In this document: positions 23,775 through 63,473 of the stretch, piece after piece | How positions within the stretch are numbered: the first letter of the stretch is position 1 | How the letters are laid out: every line of letters begins with the position of its first letter | NCBI GenBank assembly: GCA_022606135.1 | Contig: JABYQN010000005.1 | Span: forward strand, 186,001-250,000 | From: Fomes fomentarius | Taxonomy: Eukaryota > Basidiomycota > Agaricomycetes > Polyporales > Polyporaceae | Direction: 5' to 3' | Length of the DNA stretch: 64,000 nt | Made by a program: the position numbers and the translations under genes | The notes under the pieces: generated by a model | What the model saw: only the letters and a program-made list of their open reading frames with translations | Told to the model about the DNA's origin: nothing | Databases searched by the model: none

Positions 23775-24788
23775 TTATGTATCATCGTCCGCTGTCAAAT
23801 CAATGACCTCGAAACACTCAGGTGAACTAGCAGTACTGGTCTCGCTCTCCTGCACACTGCGAGCCTTCGGCTTCCGCGGGTTCCTCCTGCGCGAAAACCT
23901 GACGACAAACGACGATGATCGCATGAGCCGTGCGCGTGAACTGAGAAGCCTGTCAGCCTCGCGTCCGCGAACTTTACACTCACCACGTATAGACAGTCTC
24001 GAAGTCTGCCCCCACCTGCTCAGCTAAAGCCGCGCATTGCCTCTCCGTGGGGTGCGGCCCAGCTCGGAATGCGGCAGTCAAGATATCCAACTGCTCCCCC
24101 TTGAACATGACCCGCGGCTTCCTCGCCTGGCGCGGCAACACTTCCCTCCTGTCAGCCTCTGTCAGCGTCGGGTCGCGCCTTCTCCTGTTCTTGAACCTTG
24201 ACGCGGACGGGTAGAAAGCGCGTTAGGATTTCAGCGTACACACGAGACATGCGGCTCGAAAGCAAGCCAGGCCGCTGGCCATGGCACTAGCACTTACCAC
24301 CGGTTGACCTGCTCCGTCGACCATCCACACGCCTTGGCGATCCGGACACGCTCGTCCCAGGTAGGTTTCTTCGCTTTCGCGTAACAGTTGTCGAGTACAT
24401 CATGTGGCTTCCCCTGCAGGTCCTCGGCCTCTATACGTGCAGGGGCGCGAGTAGGCAGAGGATCCTTGATGTCAGGCTGAGGGTCTCCGAATAAATCGTC
24501 TACAGAGCTTGCTCCGGTCGGTGCAGGGCTCGCGCCGCAGGAAGCAGAGCGCTCGTCGAAGCTCGAGAATGGATTGATTGGCGTGGACTGCACGGGTGCG
24601 GGTGCGGGTGCGGGTGCGGGTGCAGGTGCAGGTGCAGGTGCGGGTGCGGGTGCGGGTGCGGGTGCGGGTGCGGGTGCGGGTGCGGGTGCGGGTGCGGGTT
24701 CTGCGCTAGGTGTGGCCAAGGATTCAACGACAATATTCTTCTCTGAGCGAGAGACTGGCCGCGACGTAGAGTGCTTCCCAGCAGACAT
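23775..24788 (-). CDS. Double-homeodomain protein (intact copy) with SUMO-interaction-like tail
   Basis: Exons 24788-24298, 24196-23984 and 23898-23775 total 276 codons (275 residues). A long Ala-Pro repeat near residues 36-65 is encoded by GGTGCG-type hexamers. The first homeodomain (about 117-176) ends EQVNRWFKNRRRR, with Trp48, Phe49, Lys50, Asn51 and Arg53. The second (about 188-247) has Phe8, Leu16, Phe20, Leu34, Ala35, Val45 and Trp48 at exact homeodomain positions but reads WFSRRRN, so position 51 is Arg. The C-terminus FEVIDLTADDDT is a classic hydrophobic-acidic SUMO-interacting motif. The open frame extends upstream to 25076, but the ATG at 24788 is preferred because the upstream part is broken in the paralog at 20133. 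Likely a nuclear DNA-binding regulator; targets are unknown. Confidence 0.75.
24594..24702 (-). repeat. Coding hexanucleotide minisatellite (Ala-Pro repeat)
   Basis: About 18 tandem GGTGCG/GGTGCA units (plus strand) encode a run of alternating Pro and Ala in the double-homeodomain protein. The paralog near 20520-20540 has only about four units, so the array expanded or contracted after duplication. The frames read Ala-Pro, His-Pro or Gly-Ala depending on strand and phase; only Ala-Pro lies in the gene. Confidence 0.85.
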
Positions 24789-25080
24789 CCTAGCGGAAAC
24801 GGGACGTTTTGCCTTGATGACTGGGGGGTCGTGTAGGTAAATATTCGTCTGCTGCATGGTGGCCCAGCTGAGTGGCAAAGCGAAGCAAGTCAAGGCGAAC
24901 GCGACGGGTTCTGGCCATACTATAACAGACAAGAGATAAAAGCTCGATCCACAATGGTGGCGTTTCGTATGTCGTTCTCGACTCCAGCAACAGTTTGGGA
25001 AGGCAGGAAGAACAAAGCGACAGTTATGCACGCTTGTTGGCAAGCAGCCTTTAACCCACAACGGAAGCCCCCTCATTATG

Positions 25081-25333
25081 ACCGGTGGACATAACGTTCT
25101 TTCGTCGACTCCTTCAGGTATGCATCATATCTCGACCTTGGGTTTCACGCTTACGGGTGGGTGTGACTAGATACTCTTCAAGCAGCACTAGTGTTCTGCC
25201 AGACATGTCGACATGGTGGCCATGCATCGCATATCCTCGAGTGGTTCTATGGCGAAGGCGGCGCTGCCTCTCGCGCACACGGGACGTGTCCCATCGCGGG
25301 GTGCGAATGCCGCTGTTCTGACGAGCTGTGACA
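25081..25333 (+). pseudogene. Duplicated 3' end of the SEA4/Mio gene
   Basis: The segment copies the end of exon 9, intron 9 and all of exon 10 of the gene at 32376-36344. It encodes VFCQTCRHGGHASHILEW, GTCPIAGCECRCSDEL and a stop at 25329-25331. The frame and the zinc-ligand Cys/His residues are intact and several differences are synonymous. With no upstream exons it cannot make the full protein. It abuts the 5' flank of the minus-strand double-homeodomain gene (about 25080). Confidence 0.75.
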
Positions 25334-25784
25334 TGGCACAACAGAATGTTCTAGTTCCCTTGCCTTGCGCTCTACGAGAATGGCGGGATGACATCCAGGA
25401 CTCCAGGTGGGCGGTTTCACCGAGATGTGTCTCTGGTAAAATGGCGTCTGCATCGCGCCTGTGGGAAATCGTCACTGAGGCGAATGTGGTAGATATGACG
25501 TGGTAGACGAGGGTAGACGAGGGTGTACATATCGGACACAGACGACAGCAACAGACACCTCTGCAGGGGGAAGATAATCTTGGCGTCGCAAGAGCCGGAT
25601 CCGTATGCCTTCAAGATTCAGGAAGAGAACACAAACCTGAGAATACGACAAATCCCTTAATGAACTTACCATGGCATCCTGGGTGGGGAAAACATCGGAG
25701 GGATTCTATACGACAAGATCTGTCATAATTGATACAACGGTTCATAGCATTTTCAACGACACAGATTGATGCATAGATACAGCT

Positions 25785-26385
25785 GGTTCCATTTTTGGTG
25801 GCCGAGCGCCCAACTGCACAGCACACTTTGCACACGAAAAATTCGAAAATGATGAAAGAGGTCAGTTCACGTTGGCACCTTGATTGGCCGACAAAACTCA
25901 TTCGGAGGCATTAATGAACACATTGAGCGATTTCTATGCCTCCCGAGGTACAGAAATCCACTCTTCGGCCTGCCTCAGGAACCACGTCATCGGGCGCCAA
26001 GAGTCCGCAACTTTGAACAAGGCATCAGAACCCCGGAATTGCTCATAGGCTACATAGCATCGCACATAGATGGTAGGGAGTGTGTATATATCATGCTAGG
26101 AAGCTCTAGGGCGAAGAGAAGAGGTTTCCGTGGCCGGACCCTCGTCAGAAATCCGGGATTGTCCCTAGATGATCTGACTTCTGTAACTTACAAACCCGAG
26201 TATCCATGGAGATTCCGAAAGTGTAGGTGTGTTTGCGATGCTTGTAGCAGTACATATCACCAGTCTCAGAGCAAGGGATGGAGCAGCAAGGGCACAGTCG
26301 ATTTATTTGTATTTTCTGACTTTTTCGTGTCGAAAGTGCGCGCGCGTCTGTGCGGCCACCAATTTCGCAAACAGCTGTACAAATA
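25785..26385. repeat. Degenerate inverted repeat pair (arms about 85 bases)
   Basis: The minus strand of about 25787-25867 and the plus strand of about 26296-26375 share interrupted similarity. Both read through a TTTTTCGTGT..AAAGTG core, GGCCACCA and CAGCTGTA in order. The arms face each other with about 430 bases between. Termini and target duplication were not found, so this may be an old element or an inverted local duplication. Confidence 0.4.
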
Positions 26386-26716
26386 TGCCATGCCCCGACT
26401 GAGCGCGAGTGAGCTCGATAAACATGATGAATGTTCAGAGAGACGAAAGATGGTGGTGTCAGTCCTCACGCGGCGTGATCTAATGTTTGTGAACTGTGTG
26501 TCCAGATTTCCAAGACTGTTTTGTTCAGCTAAGCAAAGTACAACAGCGGCTGCGAAGGAGGGCATGCATGCGTTCCAGCTGCGGCCGTGCCAGCAGACGA
26601 GAGGCAAGTTGGTGCTACATACGGGACCGTCGATCCCAACGATGGCAAGGCGTGCGTATCTCTGAGTCGTGCTCTTCGTGTGTTGCGAGTGCAAGGCTGC
26701 CAATGACTTACTTCGG

Positions 26717-27050
26717 CAGGTCCGAAATGGCTACAGTACACGCTGTCTTCTCCTCCATGGATGACTTCAACCGGTTGGAGCAGGTTGCGCACATCGAATC
26801 TGCCCAGTCTCTTAGCACAGTAGTCTCGTTTCCCTACGGGCAGGGTCCGGGTCGTGAGCATCGTGAATCGCGTCAAATCTGCAAGTGTGCATCGGGGGTT
26901 ATAAGGTCATACTTAGCACCCAGGCGATGTCCCGTGTGTAGTACGTGTCGGTTTGGATCTGATCGTAGGCCAGCTTTGCAGCGCCGCAAAGCATCTGATC
27001 GAAATCGGATCGGAGGTCCGTCCTGAAGACTAGTACAGCAGATCAAACTC
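26717..27050 (-). pseudogene. Alpha/beta-hydrolase fold gene fragment
   Basis: Two exon-like pieces are linked by an intron. The first (about 27020-26930) encodes DQMLCGAAKLAYDQIQ and TRDIAW before a GTGCTA donor. The second (about 26881-26718) follows a TTGCAG acceptor, encodes LLQPVEVIHGGEDSVYCSH and ends at a GTAAGT donor. VIHGGEDSV is typical of the catalytic-Asp turn of alpha/beta hydrolases. No nucleophile exon or His exon was found nearby, so it is called a remnant. A 20-codon piece of the same gene lies at 23341-23402. Confidence 0.45.
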
Positions 27051-27190
27051 GACATCATTGGGATTGGATCCCAAGCATTTGCAAGAGATGGAGTTCGATC
27101 GAGATCCGACAATGAACGCGATATACATACATGACATGACATAACAAGGACACAGAGAAGCGATTGCGGGAGAAGCATGGCATGCACTGA

Positions 27191-28101
27191 TCACACAACC
27201 AGTGTCGAATGCATGAGGAGGAACCTAACCTCCTCTCGTCCCATAGGCACCACCGCCCCACCGAGTTCATCGAGCAGGATCTGGTACTCATGCTCAACCT
27301 CTCCATCGACCACCCGCACGCTGTACGAAGCCATCTCCCACTCGCCCTTGCAGCCCTGGTCCTGGTCCTGAGGAGGAGAGTGGTGGAACCGCTTTTTTAG
27401 AAGCATATGCGGACTGTTCAAAAGTTCCACGATGTCCTCTGCAGAAACAACCTTGGGTGTGGCAGACCGACGCATTGCGGGAGATGTGGGGAGGCGCCCT
27501 TGATTTGGCGGAGTCGGTATCACCTGTCTGTTCCCATGACGATCTGGGAATAGGCGAGGGAGATCATGTTGACGCCAATGGTTCATTCTGTAGAATGATC
27601 AGATATCAGCATACAAATGAGACACCGATTCCAAAGCACGTACATCGCAGTCTTTCGCTTCATAACTTGCAACATAAAGTCATGATGATCCGACAACGCA
27701 TACCCGACCTTGAACTGGTCGAAAACCTGGAGAGCAGGGAATGCAATACGTTGCCGTAAGACCCGACTATAACACACCGTTTATGAGGAGAGCGTGATAA
27801 CACATAAAGTTCGCACTCACTCCTTGAACGATTTCGGCGGCGTGAGTTCTGCGATCGCAGTGTTGGCCGCACGAAGATAGTCGTCAGGATTTCCATCAGG
27901 GCCCACAATCTGGTCAGCGTATTGGAAGGGCATCACCCCCTCAGTGGCATGCAGTTCAGCAATGAGCTTGTCGCGACGAGTGGGATCGTAGCTGAGGAAC
28001 TCTGTATCTTCAGCAATCATCTTGAAGTATCGAGTCAGCTCCTGAGCAATAGCTTCAACGTCAACGCTCTCGCGGGGGAGTTTGTAAATGTCGATAGACA
28101 T
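27191..28101 (-). CDS. Family M protein, copy B (unknown function)
   Basis: Exons 28101-27821, 27766-27626 and 27587-27191 total 273 codons (272 residues), with short introns of 54 and 38 bases and consensus ends. It begins MSIDIYKLPRESVDVEAIAQ and ends in a segment VVDGEVEHEYQILLDELGG and MGREEVRFLLMHSTLVV. It is soluble, with no signal peptide, membrane helix or recognised domain. Close paralogs lie at 21308 (intact), 29050 and 38323 (both decayed). About 220 bases before the ATG are shared with copy A, so the copies probably share a promoter. As the copy with the cleanest introns, it is the best reference for the family. Confidence 0.7.
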
Positions 28102-28522
28102 GATGAAAGATTCAGAGAGACGACTGCTTCAGACCGTAACATATGAACTTGACAATTTGATCTCCGACGACGCGTCACGAACCGTCACGCTTGGCGAACC
28201 TTGCTCCGATGCTTGCTTCGAACTCCCGGGCCGGCGCGTTGGCAGCACAGTTCGCTCGACTGCTCTCCTGGCGCATGGTATCAAACCGGGACTTTATACG
28301 TCACATTTTGCTGGTGTTGTACAGATGAGATATACATCGCCTCAACGAGTGTGCCAGTCACAAGTATGGCCCCACATATGCATCACTGAGCCTGCTATAA
28401 TAGCCTCCTGACCGTACAAGTCTGTATATAGGCGCATAGTGCCTTCAGAATAGTGTGTACTATTACTACGGTGCATTAGGTCACAATGTGGATATACTAC
28501 TATCAAAACAAATACACGGGCA

Positions 28523-29037
28523 GTGTCCGCCGAACTTGAAGTTGATCTTGAACAGGCTTTCGTTAGCGCGGAGAACCTTGACGTCACCGAGAGACGCCGG
28601 TCTCGTCCTCCGCAGCGGGAGCAACCGTTCTTTGACCTAGGGCCTCCACCAGTTCTGGCACATACATCTACACTCTCACTCTCAGTGAGCGGGAGCATAC
28701 CCACGACACCAACCGGGATCATCTCCGCACGGGACCTCAGTCCGTGCGGCAGAATCTCGTGAAGCCGCTCTACACGGGTACGTTTCCTTCCTCCGACCTC
28801 CTCTTCCGTCCCTCGTCCCTCGTCCCCCTCATTCACATCCACTCCAACCCCGCATTCGCACCACCCAACTCGCCCACCATGCCCACCACGCCCAACATGA
28901 CAACGCCAACCCGGGCCTTCAGCCAGCGCGCCCTCGCCCCAATCTACTCCGGCGCCATCTCGGGGGGGCACAGTCGGCATCGCCTGGATCGTCGGACTAC
29001 GTTCAGGGGCTCGCAGGAAACCAGCTGTTTCTCTAAA
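28523..29037 (+). pseudogene. Remnant of a membrane-protein gene
   Basis: A Pro/Ser/Thr-rich open stretch (QREQPFFDLGPPPVLAHTS) is followed by a segment near 28920-29020. One frame shift there joins ALAPIYSGAISGG to TVGIAWIVGL, like a stalk followed by the start of a membrane helix. It stops within about 15 bases of family M copy C, suggesting truncation at a rearrangement junction. The family was not identified. The 258-codon antisense frame over this region (28342-29118) is not considered real. Confidence 0.3.
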
Positions 29038-29049
29038 CCAAGTTGCACC

Positions 29050-29995
29050 ATGTCTATCGACAGCTACAAAGTCCCCCGCGAGAACTTTGACGTTGAAGCT
29101 CTTGCTCAGGAGCCTCAATATGAGATGATCACTGAAGATACAGAGTTCCTCAGCTACGATCCCAACCGTCGCGACAAGCTCTTCGCCGAACTCTAGGCCA
29201 CGGAGGGGTGAGACCCCATCATTACGCTGACCAGGTTGTCCCCCCTGGTGGAGACCCTGAGGAATATCTTCGTCCGGCCAACGCCGCGATCACAGAACTC
29301 ACGCCGCCGAAATCGTTCAAGGAGTGAGTGCGAACTCAGTTCAAAGTTGCCACCGTGACGCTCTCCTCATAAATTTCATAGATGGTGTGTCATAATTATA
29401 GTCGCGTCCTACGGCTCCATATTTCATTCCCCGCTCTCCAGGTCTTCGACCAGTTCAAGTTTGGGTATGCGTTGTTGGATCACCATGACCTTATGCGGCA
29501 AATTATGAAGCGAAAGACTGCAATGTACATACCTTGGACTCAGTGTGTCTCATTTATATACTGAGATCTCATACCACAACAGATTGAATGATTGGCGTCA
29601 GCATGAATTCCTCTGTCTATTCCCTGATCGTGTCAAGTCAAACGATCAAGTGATATCGACTTCGTCTAATCATAGGCGCCTCCTCACGCCGCGTCCGTCT
29701 GCTACCTCCGAGGTAGTTTCTCCTAAGGTTTCTGCGGATGAGATAGCGGAATTCTTGAACAGTCCGCGTAAACTCTTAGGCAAGCAATTCCAGCACTCTC
29801 CGCCTCCAGACGAATATCAGCACTACAAGGGCAAGGTGGTAGATGGCTTTGTACAGCGTGCAGATGGCCGATGGAGAGGTTGGGCACGAGTACCAGATCC
29901 TGCTCGACGCACTCGATGGGGCGCCGTTGCCTATGGGACCAGAGGAGATTAGGTTCCTCCTTATGTATTCGACGCTAGTTGTGTGGATCGCGTTC
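29050..29995 (+). pseudogene. Family M copy C, decayed
   Basis: All three exon regions can be followed. Exon 1 starts MSIDSYKVPRENFDVEALAQ but has a stop at about 29194-29196 (after KLFAEL) and further indels. Exon 2 (about 29401-29540) keeps QVFDQFKFGYALLDHHDL. Exon 3 (about 29585-29990) has lost its reading frame near 29840, where YSVQMADGEVGHEYQILLD resumes in another frame. It cannot encode the full protein. Confidence 0.75.
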
Positions 29996-30059
29996 GTTGT
30001 CGGATATCAGTCGAACTCCATCTCTTGTGGACCCGTGACTCAATCCCAATGACGTCGAG

Positions 30060-30345
30060 TTTGATGTACAATATGAGAGTGTACACGGAAGCCAGCGCAT
30101 GAAGGCACATAATACATTCAGGGTGGCGCGGACTGTGGTCTTTTCTCAAGCACAACTATTCGAAAATACCTTCATTGATATTCAAATGCACTCCTATAGA
30201 CAACTGACCGGGTCCGTCGTGAATGGAGGACGCCGCACGTTGGGAGCTGCTGAAGATATGGATTGACTTGTACGTTTAGACGTGGATGATATGTTATTGG
30301 GGTATAGAAGAGGTATCAAGGAGCCGTCCCAGGGAACATCCGTCG
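30060..30345 (-). pseudogene. Short remnant of O-fucosyltransferase-like gene
   Basis: The minus strand here resembles part of the plus-strand remnant at about 36920-37260, including the shared block around GGGTATAGAAGAGGTATCAA. No useful frame remains. It is followed by a decayed TAP-type hydrolase on the same strand, the same order as the intact pair at 54075-58304. Confidence 0.45.
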
Positions 30346-30492
30346 GATGTCATGCGTCGCACTAGTGCGCATGCCCTGCAAGTACCATGATGTGTGTCCA
30401 GTCTGTACTGTCCTCACACAACGTCTTCGAAAGAAGTCGGCTCGGATCAGCGAGATTGGTGGTGTATGCGACCGAACAATTGAATCTCATTC

Positions 30493-31940
30493 TCAAGGGC
30501 CCTCATCGCCTCGAGAAGCTCCTCTCATCCTCTGCTGAGAGTGCGCGGACCGCGCGAGTCCTTCCAACGAAAAGCAGCTCATCGACCTCACAGACCGTTC
30601 ACTCCTCCGGCAACGTCCCACTCGCGTATCCGCTTGGCGGTACACAGACACGGCGAGGACACCGACAGGTGCCCGTGCGAACTCTGTGTGAGCAAGCCCG
30701 CGTCTCCAAAGCGCTCTTGCACCCTCCTCGTATGTGTGAGCGGGCAGACGGGGTCGTACTGGTTCGAAACCAGGAGGAGGGGATTGAAATTCTGTTTTGG
30801 CGTGCAAAAAAAGCCAGCATTCCGCCATTTTGGTGTGGGCTTCCAGTCGGCGCAGCGAATCCACCATCTTGCCCACATTGGCGCGAGAAGAGGAGAGAGG
30901 TGGGAGATGCGTTTGTAGGTTCGCGCAAAGGCGCCTTGGTCGTAGGTGTACGGGTATCGCAACATCGGATGGCGAGGTTAAGAGTCCTGCCTGATCGAGA
31001 GTGATTTCTTGCCAGAGTCGGCCTTGCACTCCCCGCATTCGGTCGGGCAGAGACAATTTGGCGTGCAAGCGCGGTGAGTGCAGTTTAGTTCCGAGTCTCG
31101 AGGGCGTTGTTTGTACGGGCGACGGGAGGGAATGAGGCGAGAGGTTTGTGGACTGCGTAGAAGAGCTGCTGCGAGACGAGCACTTTACGGGTGATGAATA
31201 GCGGAGGTTCGGCGAGGGGCACTGGGTCTGAAGTCTGCTCAACCTGACCATGCATACAGATATAGCGGGCGCGGATATCCTGAGGGGCCAAGTCGTAGTT
31301 GGGGCAAGCGTCTGGTCTGGCTTGGTGATAGTAGATGAAGAGAAAGTTGACGACGTCTTCGATGAATACTAGGTCGCTGTCGATCACGCCTGCACGGTAT
31401 TATCCCACGTCGCGTCCACTTGTGCTCTCGCGCGGAAGATACACATAGACTCGTTGCCTAGTAATAGATGTCCTTCCCGGGTAGCCCAGATATCCTCTGC
31501 GAGGCCGTTTCAAAGCAGCTAATCGACAGTGTCATAGTCGAGAGGAAGCAGAAGACGAGCGCATCTCTGACCAGCATAACACGAAGTCCATTGCAAACTC
31601 CTGCTTGGCTGGACCTAGGTGACGAGTCACAGGCGCGTTCAGACAACATGAGGGACGCGAGGACTCACCGTGTCCCAATCGAACTTCCTCGACACTTCCT
31701 CTCTCTAGCCTCTCTACGACTCCCGCCCAGATGAGGTAAGGTGATCTAGCGGAAAGTACAGCGACGAAGGCAACCCTTCGTGCGCTGTCGCGCAAGGCGC
31801 TCCTGCGTCCTATGTCACCAGTGGCTTTGGATTGTCGAGGTTCAGCTGCAAGGAGCGCATCCTGTCGTCCATGGCTCACTCCTACAGTGACTCGATATTC
31901 ATGAGGTTGTAGAGGGGAGCGCACTTCTCCGTAGGTCCGT
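30493..31940 (-). pseudogene. TAP-type serine hydrolase, decayed copy lacking the active site
   Basis: Pieces of the gene at 56392-58304 can be followed in order. FDWDT and a GTGAGTCC donor lie at about 31670. IWATREGHLLL..NESM...RARAQV lies at about 31440-31500. This jumps directly to DSDLVFIEDVV (about 31380). The intervening 70 or so codons of the parent, with the GFSYG nucleophile elbow, are deleted. The rest (EPPLFITRKVLV, then frameshifted pieces up to about 30493) carries several frame breaks. It cannot be catalytic. Confidence 0.75.
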
Positions 31941-32375
31941 AGGTATTGCAGCTACTTAAAATAAAATTACAATAGTTAAAATCTTTTTATGTATCAAATA
32001 GTAGTATGGCGCTTGGCTTGCGCGCGACGTCGCGGCCCGGATGGGCTACTTTGACCCGTATTCAGCAACTGTTCAATGTCTCTTGTCAATTACCACTCGA
32101 CATCTACTGCTTCCTGCGTTGAGATGTACTGAGACTCCTGCATTATAAGTACAACCAGGACAATATTCTGATTCTGACCGGTTTGTCCGACTACCTGCTC
32201 AATAATCTTGCAGAAAGTTGAGACAGACGACTGCAGTTCTGAGTTCTCGTCTCGGAAGCTCGCATCGCCTATACTGTTCAGGAACACCACGAGACCAGGC
32301 AATTGCAGAGTATGTCTTAGTGCGTACACAGCAAAGGAGTTATTGACGTTGGATGCAGGATTTTGACTCTTACAG
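31941..32375. other. Intergenic, upstream of SEA4/Mio
   Basis: An AT-rich patch (about 31960-32000) lies between the hydrolase pseudogene and the Mio start. A minus frame at 32090-32458 overlaps the Mio start and is not supported. Confidence 0.4.
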
Positions 32376-36344: not shown

Positions 36345-36452
36345 CATGGCACAATGAATGATCTCCGGCGCATGACTGCACAAAACAAGTTCCTACCATA
36401 TCTCCATCACGGTGACGTTCGCCAGTACTGAGTAAGCCTGCTGCACGTAGGC

Positions 36453-51472: not shown

Positions 51473-51923
51473 TTCCGCGCCGCATCGCAGGTTAACCCCT
51501 GGTTCTTTTGGGCGTTTCTCCGGGGTAAAGGGGGGTTTAAGCCCACATGACATCACAAATTAGCAACGATCGCAACGAAGGTGGAAGTATCTACTAGCTA
51601 TCTAGAGGCAGAAATTGTCCAACAGGGGACCGTGTATTGATTATCATCCACAATGAACTGGTAACGAATGTGGTATTTGCGATCGCCCTCGACTCAGGCC
51701 CAGAAACGTGAAGGTATTTGGCAATCAGGCAAGAATGCGCTTGGAATCCGTGACGAGCTGGTGTGCTCCCATAAAAATAACATTGTCATCACTCACAGTT
51801 GATATACCAACAGGTTCAATAACGCTCACAAGCGGAAGATGCAGGAGAAAACGTCGGGATGCGCGCAAAGAGGCATGCCTATCCAATCATTGGCATATCC
51901 TACTTTGCCTTTGCGCGTCCACG
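51473..51923. other. Intergenic between convergent transporter and homeodomain gene
   Basis: No gene is seen. This holds the 3' ends of both genes. Confidence 0.5.
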
Positions 51924-52789
51924 TCACGCCCTACTACGCCGAGACAGGGAAGAGCTGGCCATCCCTCCTTCATCCGTAGTACGTGCGCGTTCAAACCTGC
52001 CCACCATAGATGAGAGAGACGACCACGGAACAAAACTCTCGATGCGTACCAGCCCTGGACAGAGCTCTCCGTCAAACCCAGCTGCTGCGCCAGCATCATC
52101 CGACGGGTCTTCTTCAAGAACCGATCCTCCTTGAACGCCGCGCTGAGGACGCGCAGCTGCCCCTGCGTGAACTTCGTCGGGCGCCGCGGCTCGTCTGGGG
52201 GATATTGTCTGTTCGACCTCGACGGCTCGCTTCTTACAGGTAGCAGCTCCGGGGACGGGCCCGTGCCGAACGCGAGGGTGAGTCTCCGGCGTTTGAACCT
52301 GCACCTGCGTCTCAACGCTTGCTTTTTCTTTTTGAACCCAACAGCAACCGCACAGCACACACACCAATTCTCAACAGACATCTCCGCTCTGCAGAAGTCC
52401 TGGCTGAGACGGGTCTTCTCGCCGCGACTCGGGTATTGGTTCCTCGCGAAGACCTCCTCGAGCGCGGCCAGCTGCGCCGCCGTGAAACGCGTGTAGTCAT
52501 CCTCCGGGTAGGGCGCGGACACCGTGCGAGGCCCCCGCGCGAGATGTTCGCTGCTGGAACTGGAACTCGAAGCCGCTCCCGATGTCATCCTGCTCAGGTC
52601 CTGAGAGGTCGAGCCTCTAGATCTGCGGCCGCCATTTGCAGTCGTCCAAAGAGAAGAGACCATCGCTTCGGGATTCTCGCCGCCCCGTGTGGCGAGTGAG
52701 GAATATGTGCTGTGGCCCTGCGGTGTCCCGTGCAACGTGGAACCAGGGGGGCGAACAGTGTCATTGGACTTCGCATGAGGACTAGACAT
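51924..52789 (-). CDS. Double-homeodomain protein, second locus
   Basis: Exons 52789-52365, 52298-52050 and 51996-51924 total 249 codons (248 residues). After a Ser-rich N-terminus, homeodomain 1 (about 95-154) has Phe8, Leu16, Phe20, Pro26, Leu34, Val45 and Trp48 at canonical spacing and ends SVENWFKRRR. Homeodomain 2 (about 178-237) reads KFTQGQLRVLSAAF, LAQQLGLTESSVQGW then FERAR. Position 51 is Arg in both, not the usual Asn. Both introns split the Trp48 codon after TG. Homeodomain 2 is very close to that of the gene at 62636-63473, so these two are paralogs. It is likely nuclear. An annotation that misses the introns would end each homeodomain before its recognition helix. Confidence 0.75.
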
Positions 52790-54074: not shown

Positions 54075-55703
54075 TCACCCCCTCTGGACTATCTCAAAGC
54101 CATGGTGCGTCCTCCAGAGCACATCCGTCACAAACGCGCTGAACGTACTCTGCTCCGTCCCGACAACCTGCCACGCCTGAGCTACGACCATCGCGTCCAA
54201 GAACGGCATCAAGAACGGCCCAAGCGGAACCCCGTCCGATTCGCTTCGTAGCGCGGTAAGTGACCGCGTATGCTCAGGGAAGTCCTCGAGGAAGAACGAA
54301 CACGGGAACGTGCGAGTGAAGCGCCAGAGGAGCGAGTTCACTGAGGGGTTGTGTGCGTCTGTGGCGATGAAGAGCGGGACGTTGAGGATGCGCAAGTTCG
54401 ATTGATGGTGCAGAGAGCCTCGGCATGAGTATCCAGGTGAAGGAGTCGCATCCGCCGGAAAGACGGGCAGCGGTGGATGAGGTGAACGCATGGCTGGGAT
54501 GTCGGGAGCAATAACCGGAGGCTCCAGAGCGTCTTCCTCGGGGAATAGCTCGCTCTCGAGAGTGAGCAGCTCCTCATCAGAGAAGCCGAGCGCGACGTGC
54601 AGGAGCTTCCACCACGCGAGACGGACGTTCTCGAGTGCACTCCATTCGAAGATGCCGTCCCTGATCCGCATATGCACTCCTAGATACGACCCGCCGAGTG
54701 CATCATGGATAGAGGATGCCGCGTGTTCGAGGTGTGGGTTGTTGAATGCCATCCGCTCACGGATGTGCCTGCGGAGAAGGAATGTATCCTCAGCCCGCAG
54801 GTGCAGGCGCGCGGAGCCGAAGAGTGTGCCCAGCATGATCAGCCGCTCCGAACGACGCGCTAGCATGGGGATATGAATCGACTCGAGGAACTTGCGCACT
54901 GGAGGATTGACCGCGGGGAAGTCTTGGAATGCAAACTGATTACGAATCTCGTCCTTCAGATAGAACGTGTCGCCAGAGGAAATATTGAGGACGTCGTGAA
55001 GCCAGGCGTCGGTGAAGTTCCACCCATCGACGAGACGTTGCTCTTGGCGTATAGAAGAGATGTCGACGAGCCAGTCCCACGGAACGTACGTATAGGTCGA
55101 ATACTCCTCGCACTCCGGCGAAAGATCGACGTCGTGGGCGGTGGTCTGGGCACAGTAGTCTAGGCCAAATTTACTCGAGTTTGCGGACATCTCGTAGAGC
55201 TCGTCGAAGGGTAAGTAGCTGAGTGGTGCCCCAAGACGGACGGGTGGCAATAGAAGAGTACGATTCAGGATCCGCGCAAGAACAAGAGCATTCTCCAGAG
55301 CAATGCGTTGATTGTGAAAACCACTGTGAGGCAAATAGGCGAAGTACTTGACACTAGAATAAGATGCTTCATGCAGTATTGGAGTTTCAGGTTGACGATG
55401 TCCAGTAAATATCTTGGGCTTCGTCACAGTGACAATCGATGCTGGAATCGGATCCATGATAGACAAAGGAGCCGAAGAACGCCCCCATGTATCATAGAAG
55501 ACAGCATAAGCCGAGTATAGAGTAACTGAAGCCGCGATCAAGAGGACGATGATAAGGACAGTCAACTGTTTGTCGTAGAGCTGCTGAGCGTGTGTTTTTG
55601 TACGAGACCTCCAGCGAGATTTGCGCTGGCGATCCCGGTGGAGAAGATGGGCGGGCTGTCCATTGAGAGACTGTGTCAGTATGCGTCTGCCGAGAGTCGC
55701 CAT
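54075..55703 (-). CDS. O-fucosyltransferase-like type II membrane protein
   Basis: One intronless frame gives 542 residues from the ATG at 55703; the frame stays open to 55784, but MATLGRRI is the more likely start. A basic cytosolic tail is followed by one signal anchor (LTVLIIVLLIAASVTLYSAY, about residues 45-65). The lumenal part has features of the GDP-fucose O-fucosyltransferase fold: GFHNQRIALENALVLARILN then RTLLLPP near the N-terminal side, VHMRIRDGIFEW (HxRxxDG-like) in the middle, and a late LFIATDAHNPSVNSLL segment. It would act in the Golgi on secreted proteins or glycans; donor and acceptor are inferred. The lack of introns is unusual here. Decayed relatives lie at 36453-37150 and 30060-30345. 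Confidence 0.75.
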   Translation of the reverse strand: MATLGRRILTQSLNGQPAHLLHRDRQRKSRWRSRTKTHAQQLYDKQLTVLIIVLLIAASVTLYSAYAVFYDTWGRSSAPLSIMDPIPASIVTVTKPKIFTGHRQPETPILHEASYSSVKYFAYLPHSGFHNQRIALENALVLARILNRTLLLPPVRLGAPLSYLPFDELYEMSANSSKFGLDYCAQTTAHDVDLSPECEEYSTYTYVPWDWLVDISSIRQEQRLVDGWNFTDAWLHDVLNISSGDTFYLKDEIRNQFAFQDFPAVNPPVRKFLESIHIPMLARRSERLIMLGTLFGSARLHLRAEDTFLLRRHIRERMAFNNPHLEHAASSIHDALGGSYLGVHMRIRDGIFEWSALENVRLAWWKLLHVALGFSDEELLTLESELFPEEDALEPPVIAPDIPAMRSPHPPLPVFPADATPSPGYSCRGSLHHQSNLRILNVPLFIATDAHNPSVNSLLWRFTRTFPCSFFLEDFPEHTRSLTALRSESDGVPLGPFLMPFLDAMVVAQAWQVVGTEQSTFSAFVTDVLWRTHHGFEIVQRG

Positions 55704-55784
55704 AACAAATGTGTTGTCCCTGCGAAGTGCATCGTAAATGACGCGTGATGGTGTGCGGATCCCCCAGCATAAGAAACAACGCAC

Positions 55785-56391
55785 AACACGGCCGACAGCA
55801 GGTAATTGGAGATGTAAAGCCTTCCGGATTGACGAGGGACGCTAGTCGGGGGTGGTCAAGAACGATCAAGCGATAGTAAACGCCTACAGTCGTCATCGGT
55901 CGCCGCTTCAATACCGTCGCACTATACCACTTTCTCCGCCCAGGTTTTTGTGCTCCGCAACTTTACACTGCCAAGCAAGCGCCGGAACAACGGCTGGACA
56001 ACTTCATGAAGTCCACATCAATAAGTCCCACCAGTGAACGTTTGAATCCGCGTTTTCATCATCGAGCTCAGTGTTACGCGGCCGGGCTTCAATCTTCAGC
56101 TGTTCCTCAGGAGGTGTTCGAAGCTTTTGACCTCTAGTACAGCACAATGGCAAGATCAGTTATTTGAGCTATTCAGAAGCACAACTACGATCCAAGCATC
56201 GACACGATTGAAATATGAAGACAGGGCACGAGAGGAAATGAGATGAACGTCAACCATCTCGAAATGGACACCGGCGTTAATCGACCATCTCAACCTGAAA
56301 TACGGTGGTAGGTTCAATCAAGAGCGTATGAAGTGACAGACTTGTAAGGTAGCAGTGCTGTGGGCGAATATACGAGATCCTCCTGTAACAG
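55785..56391. other. Intergenic between two minus-strand genes
   Basis: No gene is seen; 3' flank of the hydrolase and 5' flank of the fucosyltransferase-like gene. Confidence 0.5.
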
Positions 56392-58304
56392 CTAGACACG
56401 AGCAAACACTGGCATGCCTTCTGCAAGACCCCTCATTGCGTCCAGGAGTTCTTCATCTTCCGTGGACAACACGCGCGTCGTCTTTGTCCGCCCAACAAAA
56501 GGTAGCTCGTCAACCTCACAAGTAGCCCCCTCTTCCGGCAGCGTCCCGTTCACAAAATATTCGCGGAGATATTTTGCCGTGCACAGCGACGGCGCAGATA
56601 GCGAACAGTGCCCATGAGACTCCTGTGTGAGCAGTACCGAGCCCCCGAAGCGCTTCTGCACGGCGCGGGCCTGTGTGAGCGGGCAGACGGGATCGTACGA
56701 CGTCGAGACGAGGAGGATTGGATGAGAGGTATTCGCGGCGCGCAGAGGACCCGTCCACCGCCATTTGGGGGTGATCTTCCAGTCCGCGCACCCGAGATAC
56801 GAGTCCGCCCAAAGCGGAGCGAGGAGCGCGGATGATTCAGAGAGGCGGCTGAAAACCTGCGCAAACTCGGCTGGGTTGTAGGTGTATGGGTCACCGTCGC
56901 CGCAGATGACGACGAGGTTGGCCTCGCCCTTGGGCATCAACGTTGGGCCGTCCTTGGACTCGCATTTGCACTCGGTGGGGCTGACGATCTCGGACGCGAG
57001 CGCGACGAGTGCGGTTTGGTTATTAGTCTCGATGGCGTGGATCGTTTTTGCGACAGTAGGGAACAGGGCGAGTGGCTTATAAGTCGCGTAGAAGAGCTGT
57101 GTGACGAGCGCTTTGCGAGTGATGACCATCGGGGGCTCAGCGAGAGACACAGGCACTGGGTCCCGCGCAACGTGGTCGAGGACATTGAAGTAGCGTTCGC
57201 GGATCTTCGTAGCGTTGGAGTCGTAGATGGGACAAGTATCCGGTCCAGCTTGATGACAGTGTTTGAAGAGGGAGTCGACGATGTCGTCGATGAACACTAG
57301 GTCCGTGTCCACCGAGGAAGCACGGTATAGTTCCGCATCAGCGACCCCGTCGATAACAAAGCGCTTGAGCTTATCAGGATACATTCCAGCAAAGTACTGG
57401 CCAAGAATCGTCCCGTAGCTCTAGCGTGTGCCCAATTAGCTGAGAACCGTATCAGGAATCAGTCGTACTTACGAAACCCCAATATTGTACTTTCTCCTGG
57501 CCGAGCAACTGCGATAACTCCAGTATATCGCGTGCGACGTTTGGGGTGCTGGAAAACCGTCCGATGTCGAGATCTCCGCCAATTCGGTCTGCACATCTCG
57601 CTGCGACGACTTGAGCTCTTGCACGGGCGATCCCCAGGGACTCATTGGTAGCGCTGAAGAACTGATGCCCCTCCTGAGTCGCCCAGATATCCCTCTGAGA
57701 TTCTGTTTCGAAGCAAGTCGCCAACGGAGTCGTCCTACCGATGCCACGTGGGTCGAAACCCAGGACATCAAAGGAAGGTCCAACGATGTGCGAGATGTTC
57801 TTTCCCAGGCGCCGGATGAAGTCGACGCCTGAACCACCGGGACCGCCTGGGTTTACGAAGATCGTCCCACGGTAGATCTCGGTGTCCGTTGCTGGAATCA
57901 TACGAAGTGCGATTGCGGTCGTCGGTCCATCCGGGGTCTCGTAATCGAGTGGGAGCAGAACCCGAGCGCACTTCTGGTCAGTGTAGCATGATGCCCACTG
58001 TATCTGCCTACTAGGCTCGAGCTGTATTGCAAAGGAATAAGCATTACCTCAGTGACCTAACAGAGCTTATTGATCGTGCGTGACTCACCGTGTCCCAATC
58101 AAATTCTTGGAGGCTGGTCTTGGGCTCCGCTCCCGGAGTAGTCTCACAATCCTGCAGAAAGCCGTAGTGTGTCACTATCAGAGTAACGATGGCAAGGGCA
58201 ACTAGCCCAATCTGGCCATTACGACTGAGCGAAGGACGTCGGATGTCGCCTGAGGCTGGCCCCTTCGGCACGAAGAGTGGCCTGTATTGAGACTTGTTAT
58301 CCAT
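56392..58304 (-). CDS. Membrane-anchored TAP-type serine hydrolase / peptidase (alpha/beta hydrolase)
   Basis: Exons 58304-58089, 58021-57473 and 57420-56392 total 598 codons (597 residues). A short cytosolic N-terminus and one helix (IGLVALAIVTLIVTHYGF, about 31-48) anchor the enzyme. The fold has W..CY...CA.LLPLDY, the oxyanion turn FVNPGGPGGSG, the nucleophile elbow GFSYG (split by intron 2 after GF), the acid in STSYDPVCPL, and the catalytic His in ESHGHCSLS, which begins the TAP C-terminal domain. Streptomyces relatives are tripeptidyl aminopeptidases, and many fungal ones are extracytosolic exo-peptidases. The substrate here is not known. A decayed copy lies at 30493-31940 and a C-terminal fragment at 23403-23720. 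Confidence 0.88.
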
Positions 58305-59464
58305 AGTTCGAGGAAAGGGGTCCTGTGAATAGAGTGATCAGCTGCATGAGTCGACATGAGGTTCGCGTGACTGGAATTCACTACCCGAACAAGCAGTGCT
58401 TTCTGTGCCGTGAACCTAGATATCAAAATCAACAAGGGGTACCTCTCCTCAGGAAAACCTGAGAGGAGTACAAGACAATAGACACGTAAACTTGAGTGTC
58501 GGCACGAGATTCACAAGCCCAGGGAACTTCTACATAATCGGTCAAGCGAGAATTCGGACAATTTCTATCAACTTCAAGTGGCTTGAACATATCGCCAATC
58601 CCGAAGTCCCGTCAGGGCTTGTTTGCTACCAGTCGACTGCACTCGGCTCGTCGATAGAGGAGTGAAAGTCTTGCTTACCTGTGTGTGTTCTCAGATGTGG
58701 CACATCCTCAACTCGACTGTGTAAGTTCAAGTTGAGGTGGCCGCGTCGTTCCAATAGAAGAGGCGCCCGCCCATGAAGGCGGCCCGAACCGGGCCCGCGT
58801 CATGATCATGATGTTGTCGAATCCGAACCTCATGCATCGACTGAGTCTTGCCCAATACTGAGTACTGAAAACTGGGTGCCACTGGGCTCCCTAAGCACCC
58901 ACTCGCGCTCGGTTTACAGTAGTAGCAAGTCTTTATTTCTCGCTCTCAAAATTTGTATGATAAATGGAGGAGATGAGCTCAATAGGCGTGCAAATTTTCA
59001 GATGGATATGAGCTTATGTCAAGTCACAGTAGACGAATCTTTTTGGCACACTGGTGAACTAAAAGAAGTCCTAAGAAACTAAGGGATCTCCTGATGCCGG
59101 CCGGCGTCTCTTCCACACTGTCAGCTGATCACAGCATGATTCACCGCTACACCTACTACTACTAGTAAGCGCGGCTGTATAGCTGGATACCGCAGTCAGA
59201 TCTGTTCGTTCATGTCCCATCTATTGATGAACGTCTATACCTGTCGGATGAAGACAACGTGAGAATCACAATGTGGTTGTGAAGCTACAGCCTACAGGTT
59301 TCAAGGTCTCTAGGACAGGCTAGCACTGTAGTACGACACTCTCAACACTCGCTCTTCTTCACCACTCCCGCCACCTTTTTCCAACCCACCCATACTTTCA
59401 CGCTTGCAGGTGCTGTGGCTATGCTCTCTGATGGGTTGTGACTAATGCCCATGTAGTCGCAGGC
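58305..59464. other. Intergenic, no supported gene
   Basis: Divergent promoters of the TAP-type hydrolase (minus) and HET-domain gene (plus). An exact inverted repeat CTCTCCTCAGG / CCTGAGAGGAG-like hairpin lies near 58443-58468. No gene is seen. Confidence 0.4.
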
Positions 59465-61564
59465 ATGTGGCTCCTGCATACAACGAAGCACAAGCTGGAG
59501 TACTTTCCTGCTCCTCCAGCGGAATACGCCATATTATCCCATGTATGGGACAAGAAGGAAATGACCTTTCAACAGGTTAAGGAGCATGCAATCTACAATT
59601 CTAAAGTCCTTGGAGCTTGTCGGTACGCTGCACACGAAGGCTTTCGCTGGTTGTGGGTCGATACATGCTGTATCGACAAGACCAACAGCACAGAGCTTTC
59701 CGAAGCCGTCAACTCGATGTTCTCCTGGTACGCAACCGCCACTATCTGCTACGTGTACCTCGCAGACGTCCAAACACCCCGACGCTCCATTGAATACACC
59801 TCACGCTTCAGGAGCAGTAGGTGGCACACCAGAGGGTGGACCTTGCAAGAGCTTCTTGCCCCCGCCGAAGTCCGATTTCTGTCGTCGCAATGGGAATATA
59901 TCGGGGACAAGACACTCCTCGCGCCTCTACTTGAAGAGATCACCGGTATCGAGGCCGACATCCTCGTCCATGGAGGGGCTTTCTCGTCCATTTCTATAGC
60001 AGATCGGATGTCTTGGGCGTCTCATCGCGTCACCACCAGGCCAGAGGACGAGGCTTATTGTCTCATGGGTATATTCAATGTCAATATTCCTATCATCTAC
60101 GGTGAGGGTCGGCGTGCTTTCCGCCGCCTACAGGAGGAGATAATGCGCACGTCCCCCGACCATACATTGTTCATGTGGGGACTCCCGATTGCGCCGTCTT
60201 CAACCATATGTCTATGCTCCGATAGCCCCTCATTGCCCCGACCAGCAGACGCCAATCTTCTTGCACTCTCCCCCAAGGTGTTCAGCCGACCGGGTCATGG
60301 CTCATCTCACTCGGTCGCTACCTCCCCCGAAGTCATCCCATACTCCAGCTTTGTAAGCACTCTTGAGTCCCTCATCAGACGTCCGGTGCTACAAGGTGGT
60401 GATGCGACCCCGTCACCTAGAGTGAGTGAATAGCTTCCCATCTCCCTACTATCAACTTATCGCAAATGACAGGGTTACGACATCCCAGAGTTCACCGTCA
60501 CAAGCTATGGTATCCGTGCACGTCTCCCGATCATTCCCCTCCCTGCCCCCCTGCTTGAGCAGAGTTGCTCGATGGCTGGTGCTGACAGTGCTGGCATGCC
60601 ATCTACCGATGATGCTTACTTAGCATTGCTTGCTTGCTCTCCTCGGGGCCTTGAGTCATCGAATACTGCTCTTACCGGGCTCATACTACGGCGGTCGCAC
60701 GGATCGCATGTCCTCCGTGTCGGGGCTCTACAGCTGCACGGAAGCAACCAATATCGTCGGTATATAGACGTTACGCCGGCGTTCTTCGAACTCATGAGCA
60801 CAGGGATCACTCTCGACTGGGACAAGCTTTGGGAGACGGTCTACATTGCTCAGGAGCTGTTCCCAGAACTAGAACTTCCATTCCGCCCCTCGCAGCCGTG
60901 GGAGGCGGATTCTGGTATACACGTCGTCATTCCGCGTCACGTCATCGGTAATCTCCAGGCCCAATGCTTCGTTCCCCGATCAGGGATCGATGAGACATAT
61001 GGCAGCCCACAAGTTCGATTATTGCAGGACATACCGTACACCTTTCTCCGCACAAAGACGGCTGAACACTCTCCCAATCCGATTGTGGACAAGGATGACG
61101 GATTTAGAGTCCACTTTGGCTCATGTGGTGCCGCACTATGGTTTGACGTCGAGGTCATAAGGCGTACCGGCACATCGGATAATAGTACCACAACATCGCT
61201 GGAGCCGCATACCCCTGGCCTTCCTCATCCCCATTGTCCACGGGTACACCTTCACGAGTGGTCTTCGTCGCTTCCACCAGGCGAGCACTGGAAGGTCGAC
61301 CGCGATGTACAGTTGCATTGGAGCTACTATCGCACCTTCCAGGTGAATGGGCGGAACATTCATCTGCGCGTCGCAAGCCGACCTGGTGTCAGGTCCGGGG
61401 AGCCGGAACTGATTCACCTGGCTATTGAGGTGGATGTGCGTTCATGGGACACGATGGCAGCATTGGAAGCTTCCATGTCTCCGGCGTCGACCAGTGGGTC
61501 TTTTGTGGGTCGCTTGACTGCTAGGTTGCGCAAGTCACAGTCCCAGGCTTCGGTTCGGCGGTAA
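59465..61564 (+). CDS. HET-domain (heterokaryon incompatibility-type) protein
   Basis: Exons 59465-60421 and 60473-61564 total 683 codons (682 residues). The N-terminus MWLLHTTKHKLEYF, YAILSHVWDKKEMTFQQV, WLWVDTCCIDKTNSTELSEA, ATICYVYLADV and SRWHTRGWTLQELLAP is the standard HET domain (residues 1-150). DEAYCLMGIFNVNIPIIYGEG follows. The second exon encodes a C-terminal region I do not recognise, ending in a beta-rich module (HEWSSSLPPGEHWKVDRDV, IHLAIEVDVRSWDT). HET proteins act in non-self recognition and can trigger cell death on hyphal fusion; many paralogs have other or unknown roles. The longer frame upstream begins at a non-ATG codon, so Met at 59465 is chosen. Confidence 0.9.
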
Positions 61565-61593
61565 TGGGATTGGACGATATGCAATAAACTTCG

Positions 61594-62007
61594 TGCCAGG
61601 GCCGCACGCTTGTCGCGACATTACCTAGTGTTGTACCCGTTCCAGATAACGCCGACAATGTTGATGACTCCCTGGTACCGTATTTGCCCTCTGTCTTCGG
61701 CCTGTGTGAAGACCTACTGTGGGCTGAGGTCAGGGAACTGGAAGCCGCTGACGCCACGCTTGCGGAGTCCCCACCTGCAGACGCTTCGGGGCGCTGCTCG
61801 CACTCGCATGTTTGCGAGTTGTCTGGATTTGTACCATCAGGCGAGCACGGCGGTGTTGCACTGGAGTGGAATTACTCCCACTCGTTTAACGCAGGGAGCA
61901 GGCGAGTTCATGTCCGAGTGGCCGGCCAACCAAGGGTGGTTGGGCGCGCTGATCCCATCCTCGTGGGCATAGAGGTGGACTTGAACGATTCGGACAGTTC
62001 ATCATGA
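61594..62007 (+). pseudogene. Partial tandem copy of the HET protein C-terminal module
   Basis: A single open frame encodes SVFGLCEDLLWAEVRELEAA, then GFVPSGEHGGVALEWNYSHS, RRVHVRVAGQPRV and ILVGIEVDLNDSDSSS before a stop at 62005-62007. This parallels the last 80 or so residues of the HET-domain protein 30 bases upstream (LPPGEHWKVD..LHWSYY..IHLRVASRPG..HLAIEVDV). No start codon, HET domain or splice link was found, so it is called a fragment. It could be an alternative last exon. Confidence 0.55.
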
Positions 62008-62635
62008 CGGCGAGGCTCTACTGCACAGTATGCGTTGTGACGATACCTAGCTGTCCCATGAGCGCTTATCCCAGGTTTTGACCCAAACGCTCATGGCCGC
62101 GTCGCGTGCTCCGTGGCCGTCTCTTGAGTCTCCCTCCCACCATAAACGTTCCATAGCAGTCATAGTGGTTTGTTCCATTGATCGCAATCCTGAATATTTA
62201 TTCTGCCGCTTGGCTGCCAACGACACCGTTTCAGGACAGATCCCCAGCCCAAAGCCTTGGTAACCAGGAGCCTCCTCAAATGAATGCACACTGGACAGCA
62301 AAAAGTAGGTAAGCACGTATACTGATGTTGCATACTTATCAATCTCTTGACGGGCGGAATCCGGAGGCCACCTGTCGAGGACACATCCTTCTTCCCTATT
62401 ACCACGAGATACATCTGGCGCTAGCCCGTTCAACCGGACATACGATGTCGAATGTCGCCTACGCAGGCTCGGAGCCGCGTACTTAGGCAGTGTTCAACCT
62501 CTGGATCGCCGTTGCTGTGCATTGTGGAACATTTTCTGCAGTATCTCACGAGAGAGCCCTTCGGGTGAAGTCGACGAATCGCCTTGCAAGTACAAGTATG
62601 TCCGCGTCCACTCAGATACACAAACTCGCTATGAT
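62008..62635. other. Intergenic between HET locus and homeodomain gene
   Basis: No gene is seen. Minus-strand frames here lack domains. Confidence 0.45.
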
Positions 62636-63473
62636 CTATTTAGATCGCGCATCACTTCGAAACGGAGAAGTGCTGGCTAACGCTGCCTTCTTCCTTTGCA
62701 CCTTGAACCTGTTACCTCCGGCGAGATGCATGCGTAGCGAGATTTTAGAGCCTCGAGCTGACCAATTCTCCACAGAGCGTTCCGGAACACCAAGCTGTTG
62801 AGCTAGCGACATACGACGCGCTTGTTTCAACGACCGCTCCTCGCTGAAAGCCGCAGTCAGAATGCTAAGCTGCTCCGCAGTGAACCTGTGCGCCGACGAG
62901 TTCCGCAGCCCGGCAGCGGGATAGTTCCTCTTGCCGTCACCGGGCATGGCAGACTGGCTGGTTCCCGCACTTCTCTGACGTTGCTTGAACCTACAGTCTT
63001 CTCTCAGCCCCAAACTCGACAGCAGCGTGCAAAAGTGCACAGACCACGCCTCGACTGTGAGCTCTGATTTGCCAATCTCATGGCTGATGCGGTTCTTCTC
63101 ATCCGTACTGGGACGGTTATTCCTCGAGAAATGCCCCTCGAGAATGGCGAGCTGCTCCGGGGTTAACTTCATCCAAGCCTTGCGTTGTCCGGGCGCCGCA
63201 GGGCTAGAGGTGTATTCTCCAGCGGCCGAAGACCCTGGCGATTCTGCGATTCCTTCGGATCGAGAGAATGCATGACTATCCAAGAGTGAGTGCAGTGAAC
63301 TCGTTGCAAGCCCCGGGCCGGAATATGGAACCGTTGGGGACTCATGATACAACGGAAGACTGAGAATGGGCAGGAGCAACGGCCCATCCAGGTCCCTGTG
63401 GATTGTAAGGTACCTCATCAACTGGTGAGTCTCCGAACAGTGAGGAATCATCGTTCATATTATGATGAGACAT
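62636..63473 (-). CDS. Double-homeodomain protein, third locus (5' end unresolved)
   Basis: Exon 3 is 62708-62636, exon 2 is 62990-62763, and exon 1 ends at 63045. Homeodomain 1 reads KLTPEQLAILEGHF, ISHEIGKSELTVEAW then FKQRQR. Homeodomain 2 reads RFTAEQLSILTAAF, LAQQLGVPERSVENW then FKVQRKK. Both have canonical 60-residue spacing and both introns split the Trp48 codon after TG. Position 51 is Gln in the first and Val in the second. Two starts compete: MIPHCSETHQ at 63451 is in frame with the homeodomains but looks unlike coding sequence. MSHHNMNDDSSLFGDSPVDE at 63473 looks real but needs a small intron to reach the homeodomain frame. Confidence 0.7.

What the first reader, a model, noticed from the sequence alone, without database searches (positions are those of the whole stretch)
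23775..63473. A fungal family of tandem double-homeodomain proteins
Three separate loci (23775-24788, 51924-52789, 62636-63473) and one truncated copy (20430-21112) each encode two homeodomains in one polypeptide of about 250-275 residues. Hydrophobic core positions (8, 16, 20, 34, 45, 48, 49) fall at exact spacing in every domain. Known fungal homeodomain proteins, including mating-type HD1 and HD2, have one homeodomain each. Tandem double homeodomains are best known from mammalian DUX proteins. The architecture looks convergent and expanded in this genome.
Basis: partly seen in the sequence, partly recalled or inferred. Interest (0 to 1): 0.88.

Follow-up and report, generated by a model that had tools for sequence, protein, structure and literature searches.

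The report
Twin-homeodomain gene cluster in tinder fungus
One stretch of the genome of the tinder fungus Fomes fomentarius holds a cluster of much-diverged related genes, five of them predicted to encode two linked homeodomains each, and nearly all of these domains lack the asparagine by which homeodomains normally read DNA, so the proteins likely recognise DNA or partners in an unusual way.

Summary
Three window loci (23775-24788, 51924-52789, 62636-63418) each give a gene model with two Pfam homeodomains; 20430-21112 is a truncated inverted copy of the first. The genome is Fomes fomentarius. Two more two-domain genes lie on the same contig, one starting about 60 bases past the window's end, plus four single-domain or relic loci, all found within 220 kb. 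Every whole domain read is predicted to be split by an intron at the same base, inside the Trp48 codon, and the middle exon of each two-domain gene joins both domains. One published model (C8Q74DRAFT_682953) has copy B's splice junctions. DUX4's double homeodomain is the best PDB match by sequence and by Foldseek. The premise that fungal homeodomain proteins carry one domain is wrong: a three-homeodomain protein in this genome has homologues across Agaricomycetes. Likeness to DUX is architectural only: Asn51 is kept in 1 of 12 domains tabulated but in 11 of 11 others read in this genome, and DUX4's poly-Arg arms are absent. No named relative outside Fomes was found in two word-limited searches. 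The cluster is not at a mating-type locus. Most likely: a local duplicated family with altered DNA or partner recognition; function untested.

The parts
23775..24788 (-). Gene A, two homeodomains. Predicted exons 24298-24788, 23984-24196, 23775-23898; introns 24197-24297 and 23899-23983, both in a Trp48 codon. Its first domain has Asn51 (WFKNRR), the only one of the 12 tabulated.
20430..21112 (+). Truncated inverted copy of A (Ap): whole first domain (also WFKNRR), second domain cut at profile position 22. Predicted intron 20837-20940.
20127..21079 (+). Segment repeated in inverted orientation at 24058-25082, 94.7% and 95.4% identical in two aligned pieces
51924..52789 (-). Gene B, two homeodomains; predicted introns 52299-52364 and 51997-52049. 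Published model C8Q74DRAFT_682953 (P0005, 206 aa, starts at a later Met) has the same two splice junctions.
62636..63418 (-). Gene C, two homeodomains; predicted introns 62991-63044 and 62709-62762. Start codon unsure (63418 or 63451). Head to head with gene D, which starts about 60 bases beyond the window's end.
59432..60430 (+). Neighbouring HET-domain frame (context only, not part of the family)

Best explanation
It is a local family of predicted two-homeodomain genes in Fomes fomentarius that likely spread by duplication and likely act as nuclear regulators whose linked domains no longer read the usual TAAT-type site, because the base-reading Asn51 is absent from 11 of the 12 domains tabulated while the fold residues remain. 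Shown by sequence: the paired domains in joined exons, the clustering of the copies found on one contig (75-295 kb of C5) away from the mating-type loci, the truncated relics and near-identical duplicated segments, and the absence of Asn51. Predicted: introns at the same base of the Trp48 codon in every whole domain read. Inferred: (1) the two domains arose by internal duplication of a one-domain gene that had the Trp48 intron, before the family spread; (2) the domains still fold, since core positions are kept and a model of copy E shows two three-helix units; (3) position 51, now Arg in 7 of 12 domains, would contact another base (such as guanine) or the backbone, or the helix now serves protein contacts; (4) two linked domains would act as a built-in dimer, as in DUX4. 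Expression, DNA binding and biological role are untested.
For: Two PF00046 stretches in A, B, C, D and in P0005 and P0001. A search for introns opening inside a Trp48 codon found one in all 10 domains of A-E and in F, the F-like copy, G, the 110-kb copy and Ap's first domain; of the other homeodomain loci searched the same way only L015 has it (the match listed for L014 is spurious, its WFQNRR being contiguous), and the MAT HD2-like gene has its intron just after the Trp codon. The middle exon joins both domains. P0005 is an independent model with B's junctions. PDB profile search: best match DUX4 6e8c, E 6.7e-22 over both domains; Foldseek with the model of P0001: first seven rows all two-homeodomain structures, six DUX4 and one tandem engrailed. 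AlphaFold model of P0001: two three-helix units, block pLDDT 70-88 and 75-80. Asn51 in 1 of 12 against 11 of 11 other homeodomains read, Fisher p 9.6e-6. Arg/Lys53 in 11 of 12. Unnamed relatives of A, B, C keep the one domain compared at 41/44, 38/43, 39/43 residues without gaps; gap columns (2, 16, 4) fall outside it. In DUX4, single N69A or N144A mutants lose transactivation (PMC5990521, passages).
Against: No expression data. Published models were found for only 2 of 5 two-domain genes. The intron search looked for this one intron class only, and offered other acceptors in A, B, D and E; I took those giving WF or WY and a basic stretch. E's second intron differs between the published model (WYNHQ) and mine (WYSKQR). 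Between B and P0007 the aligned residues outside the domain are as alike (37/41) as inside (38/43); between E and P0002 the homeodomain differs more (28/44) than the rest (151/186), which fits relaxed as well as shifted selection. A against Ap: dN/dS 0.32 in exon 1 (6 and 6 changes) but 0.69 over 50 codons of exon 2, a stretch that runs past Ap's break. The model of P0005 is of very low confidence (mean pLDDT 43.3, no residue over 70), though with the same 3+3 helices. Foldseek E-values did not reach 0.001, and the two-domain rows have rmsd of 12-16, so the relative placing of the domains is not matched. The tree of 22 domains is weak: A's two domains and B's and C's first domains fall with the other homeodomains in the free tree, though one family clade is not rejected (AU p 0.537). 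Loss of Asn51 could mean loss of function. B's second recognition helix is net acidic.
Confidence: 0.55

Rival explanations
1. Decaying gene family: most copies are pseudogenes or are drifting, Asn51 was lost because nothing selects for DNA binding any more, and there is no present function.
For: Five relic or single-domain loci (Ap, F, F-like, G, the 110-kb copy); F against its copy dN/dS 0.8 on 50 codons, 4.7 synonymous to 11.3 nonsynonymous changes; A against Ap 0.69 in exon 2; E's homeodomain less alike than its N-terminus against P0002; published models for only 2 of 5.
Against: A-E all keep open frames, GT-AG introns and core residues after great divergence (28-35% identity to E over the two-domain core); relatives of A, B, C keep the compared domain without gaps; A against Ap exon 1 dN/dS 0.32, but only 6 and 6 changes.
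Confidence: 0.25
2. DUX4-like transcription factors proper: tandem homeodomains binding TAAT-type double sites.
For: Architecture and best PDB matches.
Against: Asn51 absent in 11 of 12 domains and no poly-Arg arm in the 10 domains examined (at most 3 basic of 7); these motifs are needed in DUX4 (PMC5990521, passages).
Confidence: 0.08
3. Duplicated mating-type (HD1/HD2) genes or a third homeodomain compatibility locus; C and D stand head to head like a mating-type pair.
For: C and D are divergent, about 610-640 bases apart; great divergence; the MAT HD2-like gene has an intron one base from the family's.
Against: The MAT HD2-like gene lies on C2 at 3.07 Mb, about 1.4 kb from a Peptidase_M3 (MIP-like) gene; STE3 receptors lie on C16 and C3; two domains instead of one; Asn51 absent. 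Mating_C found nothing, but that search had no positive control either.
Confidence: 0.07
4. DNA-binding part of a mobile element (HTH_Tnp-like pair), not a host regulator.
For: PF01527 HTH_Tnp_1 passes its curated cut-off for P0001 (27 bits, cut-off 24.1, E 5.3e-6), though no stretch passes alone; segmental copies exist.
Against: PF00046 scores far better (65.8 bits in P0001); 30 of the window's 70 frames of 150 aa or more were scanned and gave no transposase, but carnitine acyltransferase, MIOS, FGAR-AT, glycosyltransferase and others.
Confidence: 0.03

Closest known systems
DUX4 / DUX double-homeobox proteins (mammals)
   Same: Two homeodomains in one polypeptide joined by a short linker; best PDB profile match across both domains (6e8c, E 6.7e-22) and top Foldseek rows.
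   Different: Base-reading Asn absent in 11 of 12 domains, no poly-Arg arms, the two domains 14-17 of 57 identical within a protein against 54% in DUX4 (PMC5990521), a predicted intron in each domain.
Agaricomycete three-homeodomain protein (F. fomentarius C8Q74DRAFT_1192864, C. cinerea CC1G_06624)
   Same: Several homeodomains in one fungal polypeptide.
   Different: Three domains, all with Asn51 in the F. fomentarius copy, conserved across the class, introns of its first two domains in the Met codon before helix 3.
Basidiomycete mating-type HD2 protein (L016)
   Same: Homeodomain protein with an intron at Trp48.
   Different: One domain, WFQNRR kept, intron after the Trp codon (phase 0), beside a Peptidase_M3 gene on C2.
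One-homeodomain gene L015 (C5:2243519)
   Same: Intron at the identical base, inside Trp48; possible source of the family (inference).
   Different: One domain, Asn51 kept, 2 Mb away.

Membership tests
Homeodomain superfamily (PF00046) | Profile match over the curated cut-off, three helices with the Trp48-Phe49 core | tested here: met
   (E 1e-17 to 2.4e-24 for whole proteins, two stretches each); core positions; helices (the latter of low confidence)
Homeodomain superfamily (PF00046) | Asn51 in the recognition helix (usual, not part of Pfam's definition) | tested here: not met
   1 of 12 domains tabulated; 11 of 11 other homeodomains read in this genome have it
DUX double-homeobox proteins | Two homeodomains in one polypeptide | tested here: met
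DUX double-homeobox proteins | QNR base-reading motif in both domains | tested here: not met
   motif defined in PMC5990521
DUX double-homeobox proteins | Poly-Arg arm before each domain | tested here: not met
   at most 3 basic residues of 7 in 10 domains
Mating-type HD1/HD2 | One homeodomain per protein | tested here: not met
Mating-type HD1/HD2 | Location beside MIP | tested here: not met
   Peptidase_M3 matches on C2 and C7 only, the C2 one about 1.4 kb from the HD2-like gene
Agaricomycete three-homeodomain protein | Three homeodomain stretches | tested here: not met
   Two stretches in A-D, P0001, P0005 against three in 8 of 8 members scanned
Any of these | Sequence-specific DNA binding and transcription control | not testable with these tools
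   Needs SELEX, gel shift or reporter assays

The most novel reading that the evidence does not exclude
A fungal tandem-homeodomain family has rewritten the homeodomain code: Asn51, the most constant base-reading residue, is replaced, mostly by Arg, so that two linked domains read guanine-containing sites instead of TAAT, and the cluster evolves as a fast, lineage-private regulatory or recognition system outside the mating-type loci.
Probability: 0.2. Interest if true: 0.8.

Novelty: new variant of a known kind. Interest (0 to 1): 0.5.

Why it matters
Tandem double homeodomains are best known from mammalian DUX genes. A fungal family with the same layout but without Asn51 gives natural proteins in which to ask what a homeodomain does once its main base-reading residue is gone, and whether Arg51 makes a new specificity. 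The three-homeodomain protein met on the way shows that multi-homeodomain proteins are widespread in mushrooms.
Full report
What is there. The window is C5:186001-250000 of a 40.9-Mb genome in 24 contigs, identified as Fomes fomentarius because two published protein models on a contig of C5's length match genes found here (P0001 = C8Q74DRAFT_1216834 at copy E, P0005 = C8Q74DRAFT_682953 at copy B). Genes A (23775-24788), B (51924-52789) and C (62636 to about 63418), all on the minus strand, each encode two homeodomains. PF00046 finds two stretches in each of A-D at E 1e-17 to 3e-22.

The intron rule. I searched for introns that open after TG of a Trp codon, the next exon supplying the G, and that lead to a WF- or WY-like continuation (for other loci). 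Such an intron exists in both domains of A-E and in the single whole domains of F, the F-like copy, G, the 110-kb copy and Ap. The search looked for this class only and listed other acceptors for A, B, D and E; I took those giving WF or WY plus a basic stretch. The published model of B (P0005) has the same two junctions; that of E (P0001) has the same first junction and a different second one. Of the other homeodomain loci searched the same way only L015 has this intron; the match listed for L014 is spurious. The mating-type HD2-like gene has its intron directly after the Trp codon and L021 after WFQN plus two bases; the first two domains of the three-homeodomain gene have theirs in the Met codon before helix 3. 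The middle exon of each two-domain gene holds helix 3 of domain 1 and helices 1-2 of domain 2, so the two domains are joined without any assumption on outer exons; in B and C the unspliced frame also runs through both.

The family in the genome. Whole-genome searches place the members found on C5 between about 75 and 295 kb: F (75.2 kb), an F-like copy (82.4), a third such copy (109.7), E (144.4-145.3), Ap (206.4), A (209.8-210.8), B (237.9-238.8), C (248.6-249.4), D (250.06-251.65) and G (295.4). A-E have two domains; F, its two copies and G have one; Ap is truncated. Weak matches elsewhere (such as C11:489864 and C7:924591) were not read. Ap and A lie in an inverted repeat of about 1 kb, 94.7-95.4% identical. 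The F-like copy and the 109.7-kb copy share about 2.6 kb at 92.6%. C and D are divergent, about 610-640 bases apart. Gaps between fetched stretches of C5 were searched only with the genome tool, whose counts are lower bounds.

What the domains keep and lose. Twelve domains were tabulated: both of A-E, F's and G's. Ap's (Asn51, nearly identical to A's) and those of the F-like and 110-kb copies (Arg51) were left out as near copies. Leu16 and Trp48 are kept in 12 of 12, Phe/Tyr20 and Phe/Tyr49 in 12 of 12, Arg/Lys53 in 11 of 12; Asn51 is kept in 1 of 12 (A's first) and is Arg in 7, with Lys, Gln, Thr and Val once each. The Lys is E's second domain by my splice; the published model would put another residue there. 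Eleven other homeodomains that I read in this genome all have Asn51 (L014-L019, three in L020, L021, L022; by eye; Fisher p 9.6e-6). In DUX4 the matching Asn of HD2 hydrogen-bonds an adenine, is called strictly conserved in the superfamily, and single N69A or N144A mutants lose transactivation (PMC5990521, passages). DUX4's poly-Arg arms are also missing: at most 3 basic residues of 7. So the likeness to DUX4, strong by profile (E 6.7e-22 across both domains) and top-ranked by fold (first seven Foldseek rows are two-homeodomain structures, E about 0.003-0.013, rmsd 12-16), concerns layout and fold, not the base-reading chemistry.

Structure. P0001 folded from a single sequence gives two three-helix units (191-204/211-221/225-236 and 254-266/272-281/286-295) at block pLDDT 70-88 and 75-80 after a low-confidence N-terminus, overall mean 53.8. 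P0005 gave helices in the same pattern but at mean pLDDT 43.3.

Relatives. Two protein searches found, apart from the two F. fomentarius models and the window's own Ap frame (P0003), five unnamed proteins, all from contigs under 5 kb, close to A (P0004), B (P0006, P0007), C (P0008) and E (P0002), and one insect BarH-like protein at E 3.4e-6. I compared four of the five (P0006 was left out, being close to P0007). For A, B and C the one domain compared is 41/44, 38/43 and 39/43 identical without gaps; outside it 64/80 with 2 gap columns, 37/41 with 16, and 51/65 with 4; for E the domain is less alike (28/44) than the rest (151/186, 1 gap column). The same database holds proteins of close relatives (Earliella, Daedaleopsis, Cerioporus, Ganoderma, Trametes), so the lack of named hits there suggests a young or very fast family; but candidates must share exact five-residue words and only about 8000 were scored, so absence is not shown.

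The premise on fungi. The gene at C2:1934666-1935905 encodes three homeodomains. A search with it found 266 proteins at E up to 1e-8; of the 120 listed, every row that names an organism names an Agaricomycete (class by my own knowledge). I scanned 8 (P0010, P0011, P0012, P0016, P0027, P0056, P0103, P0126); 8 of 8 have three PF00046 stretches. Several homeodomains in one polypeptide are thus not new for fungi.

Mating type. The HD2-like gene is at C2:3070912, about 1.4 kb from a Peptidase_M3 (MIP-like) gene; STE3 receptors are on C16 and C3. The family is at neither.

Origin and mechanism (inference). Shared intron base and domain likeness point to one ancestral domain with a Trp48 intron, doubled inside one gene and then spread over 220 kb by segmental copying with loss. 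The tree of 22 short domains is too weak to prove this; one clade for the family (AU p 0.537), for first domains (0.156) and for second domains (0.526) is not rejected. I take altered DNA or partner recognition as likelier than plain decay, because frames, splice sites, core residues and Arg53 persist in five very diverged genes, but decay keeps a quarter of my belief.

Noticed in passing
L020 (G000:C2:1933000-1937500): Three-homeodomain gene (published model P0010) with homologues across Agaricomycetes; 8 of 8 scanned have three homeodomain stretches.
   Followed up: yes
L010 and L030 (C5:81-84 kb and 109-112 kb): Duplicated segment of about 2.6 kb (92.6% identical) that carries an RNase H-like frame (named by eye from its VKGHAGIEGNEGADQLA-like stretch) next to a one-homeodomain relic.
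   Followed up: partly
window 24597-24700: Hexanucleotide (GCGGGT-like) array coding for Pro-Ala in gene A, much longer than in its inverted copy at about 20520-20545: possibly variable in length.
   Followed up: no
window 23775-23820: Gene A ends in ECFEVIDLTADDDT, which looks like a SUMO-interaction motif (recalled, untested).
   Followed up: no
L012 (C5:250060-250800): N-terminal part of gene D contains an internal repeat of about 110 residues (around HYTPPLGGHALSNDQTLHSSGPFP, twice).
   Followed up: no
L026 and L024: E and F share an N-terminal motif (RLPGIxSFxPPPG...PPGHSF) outside the homeodomains.
   Followed up: no
window 59432-60430: HET-domain (heterokaryon incompatibility) frame beside gene C.
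   Followed up: no
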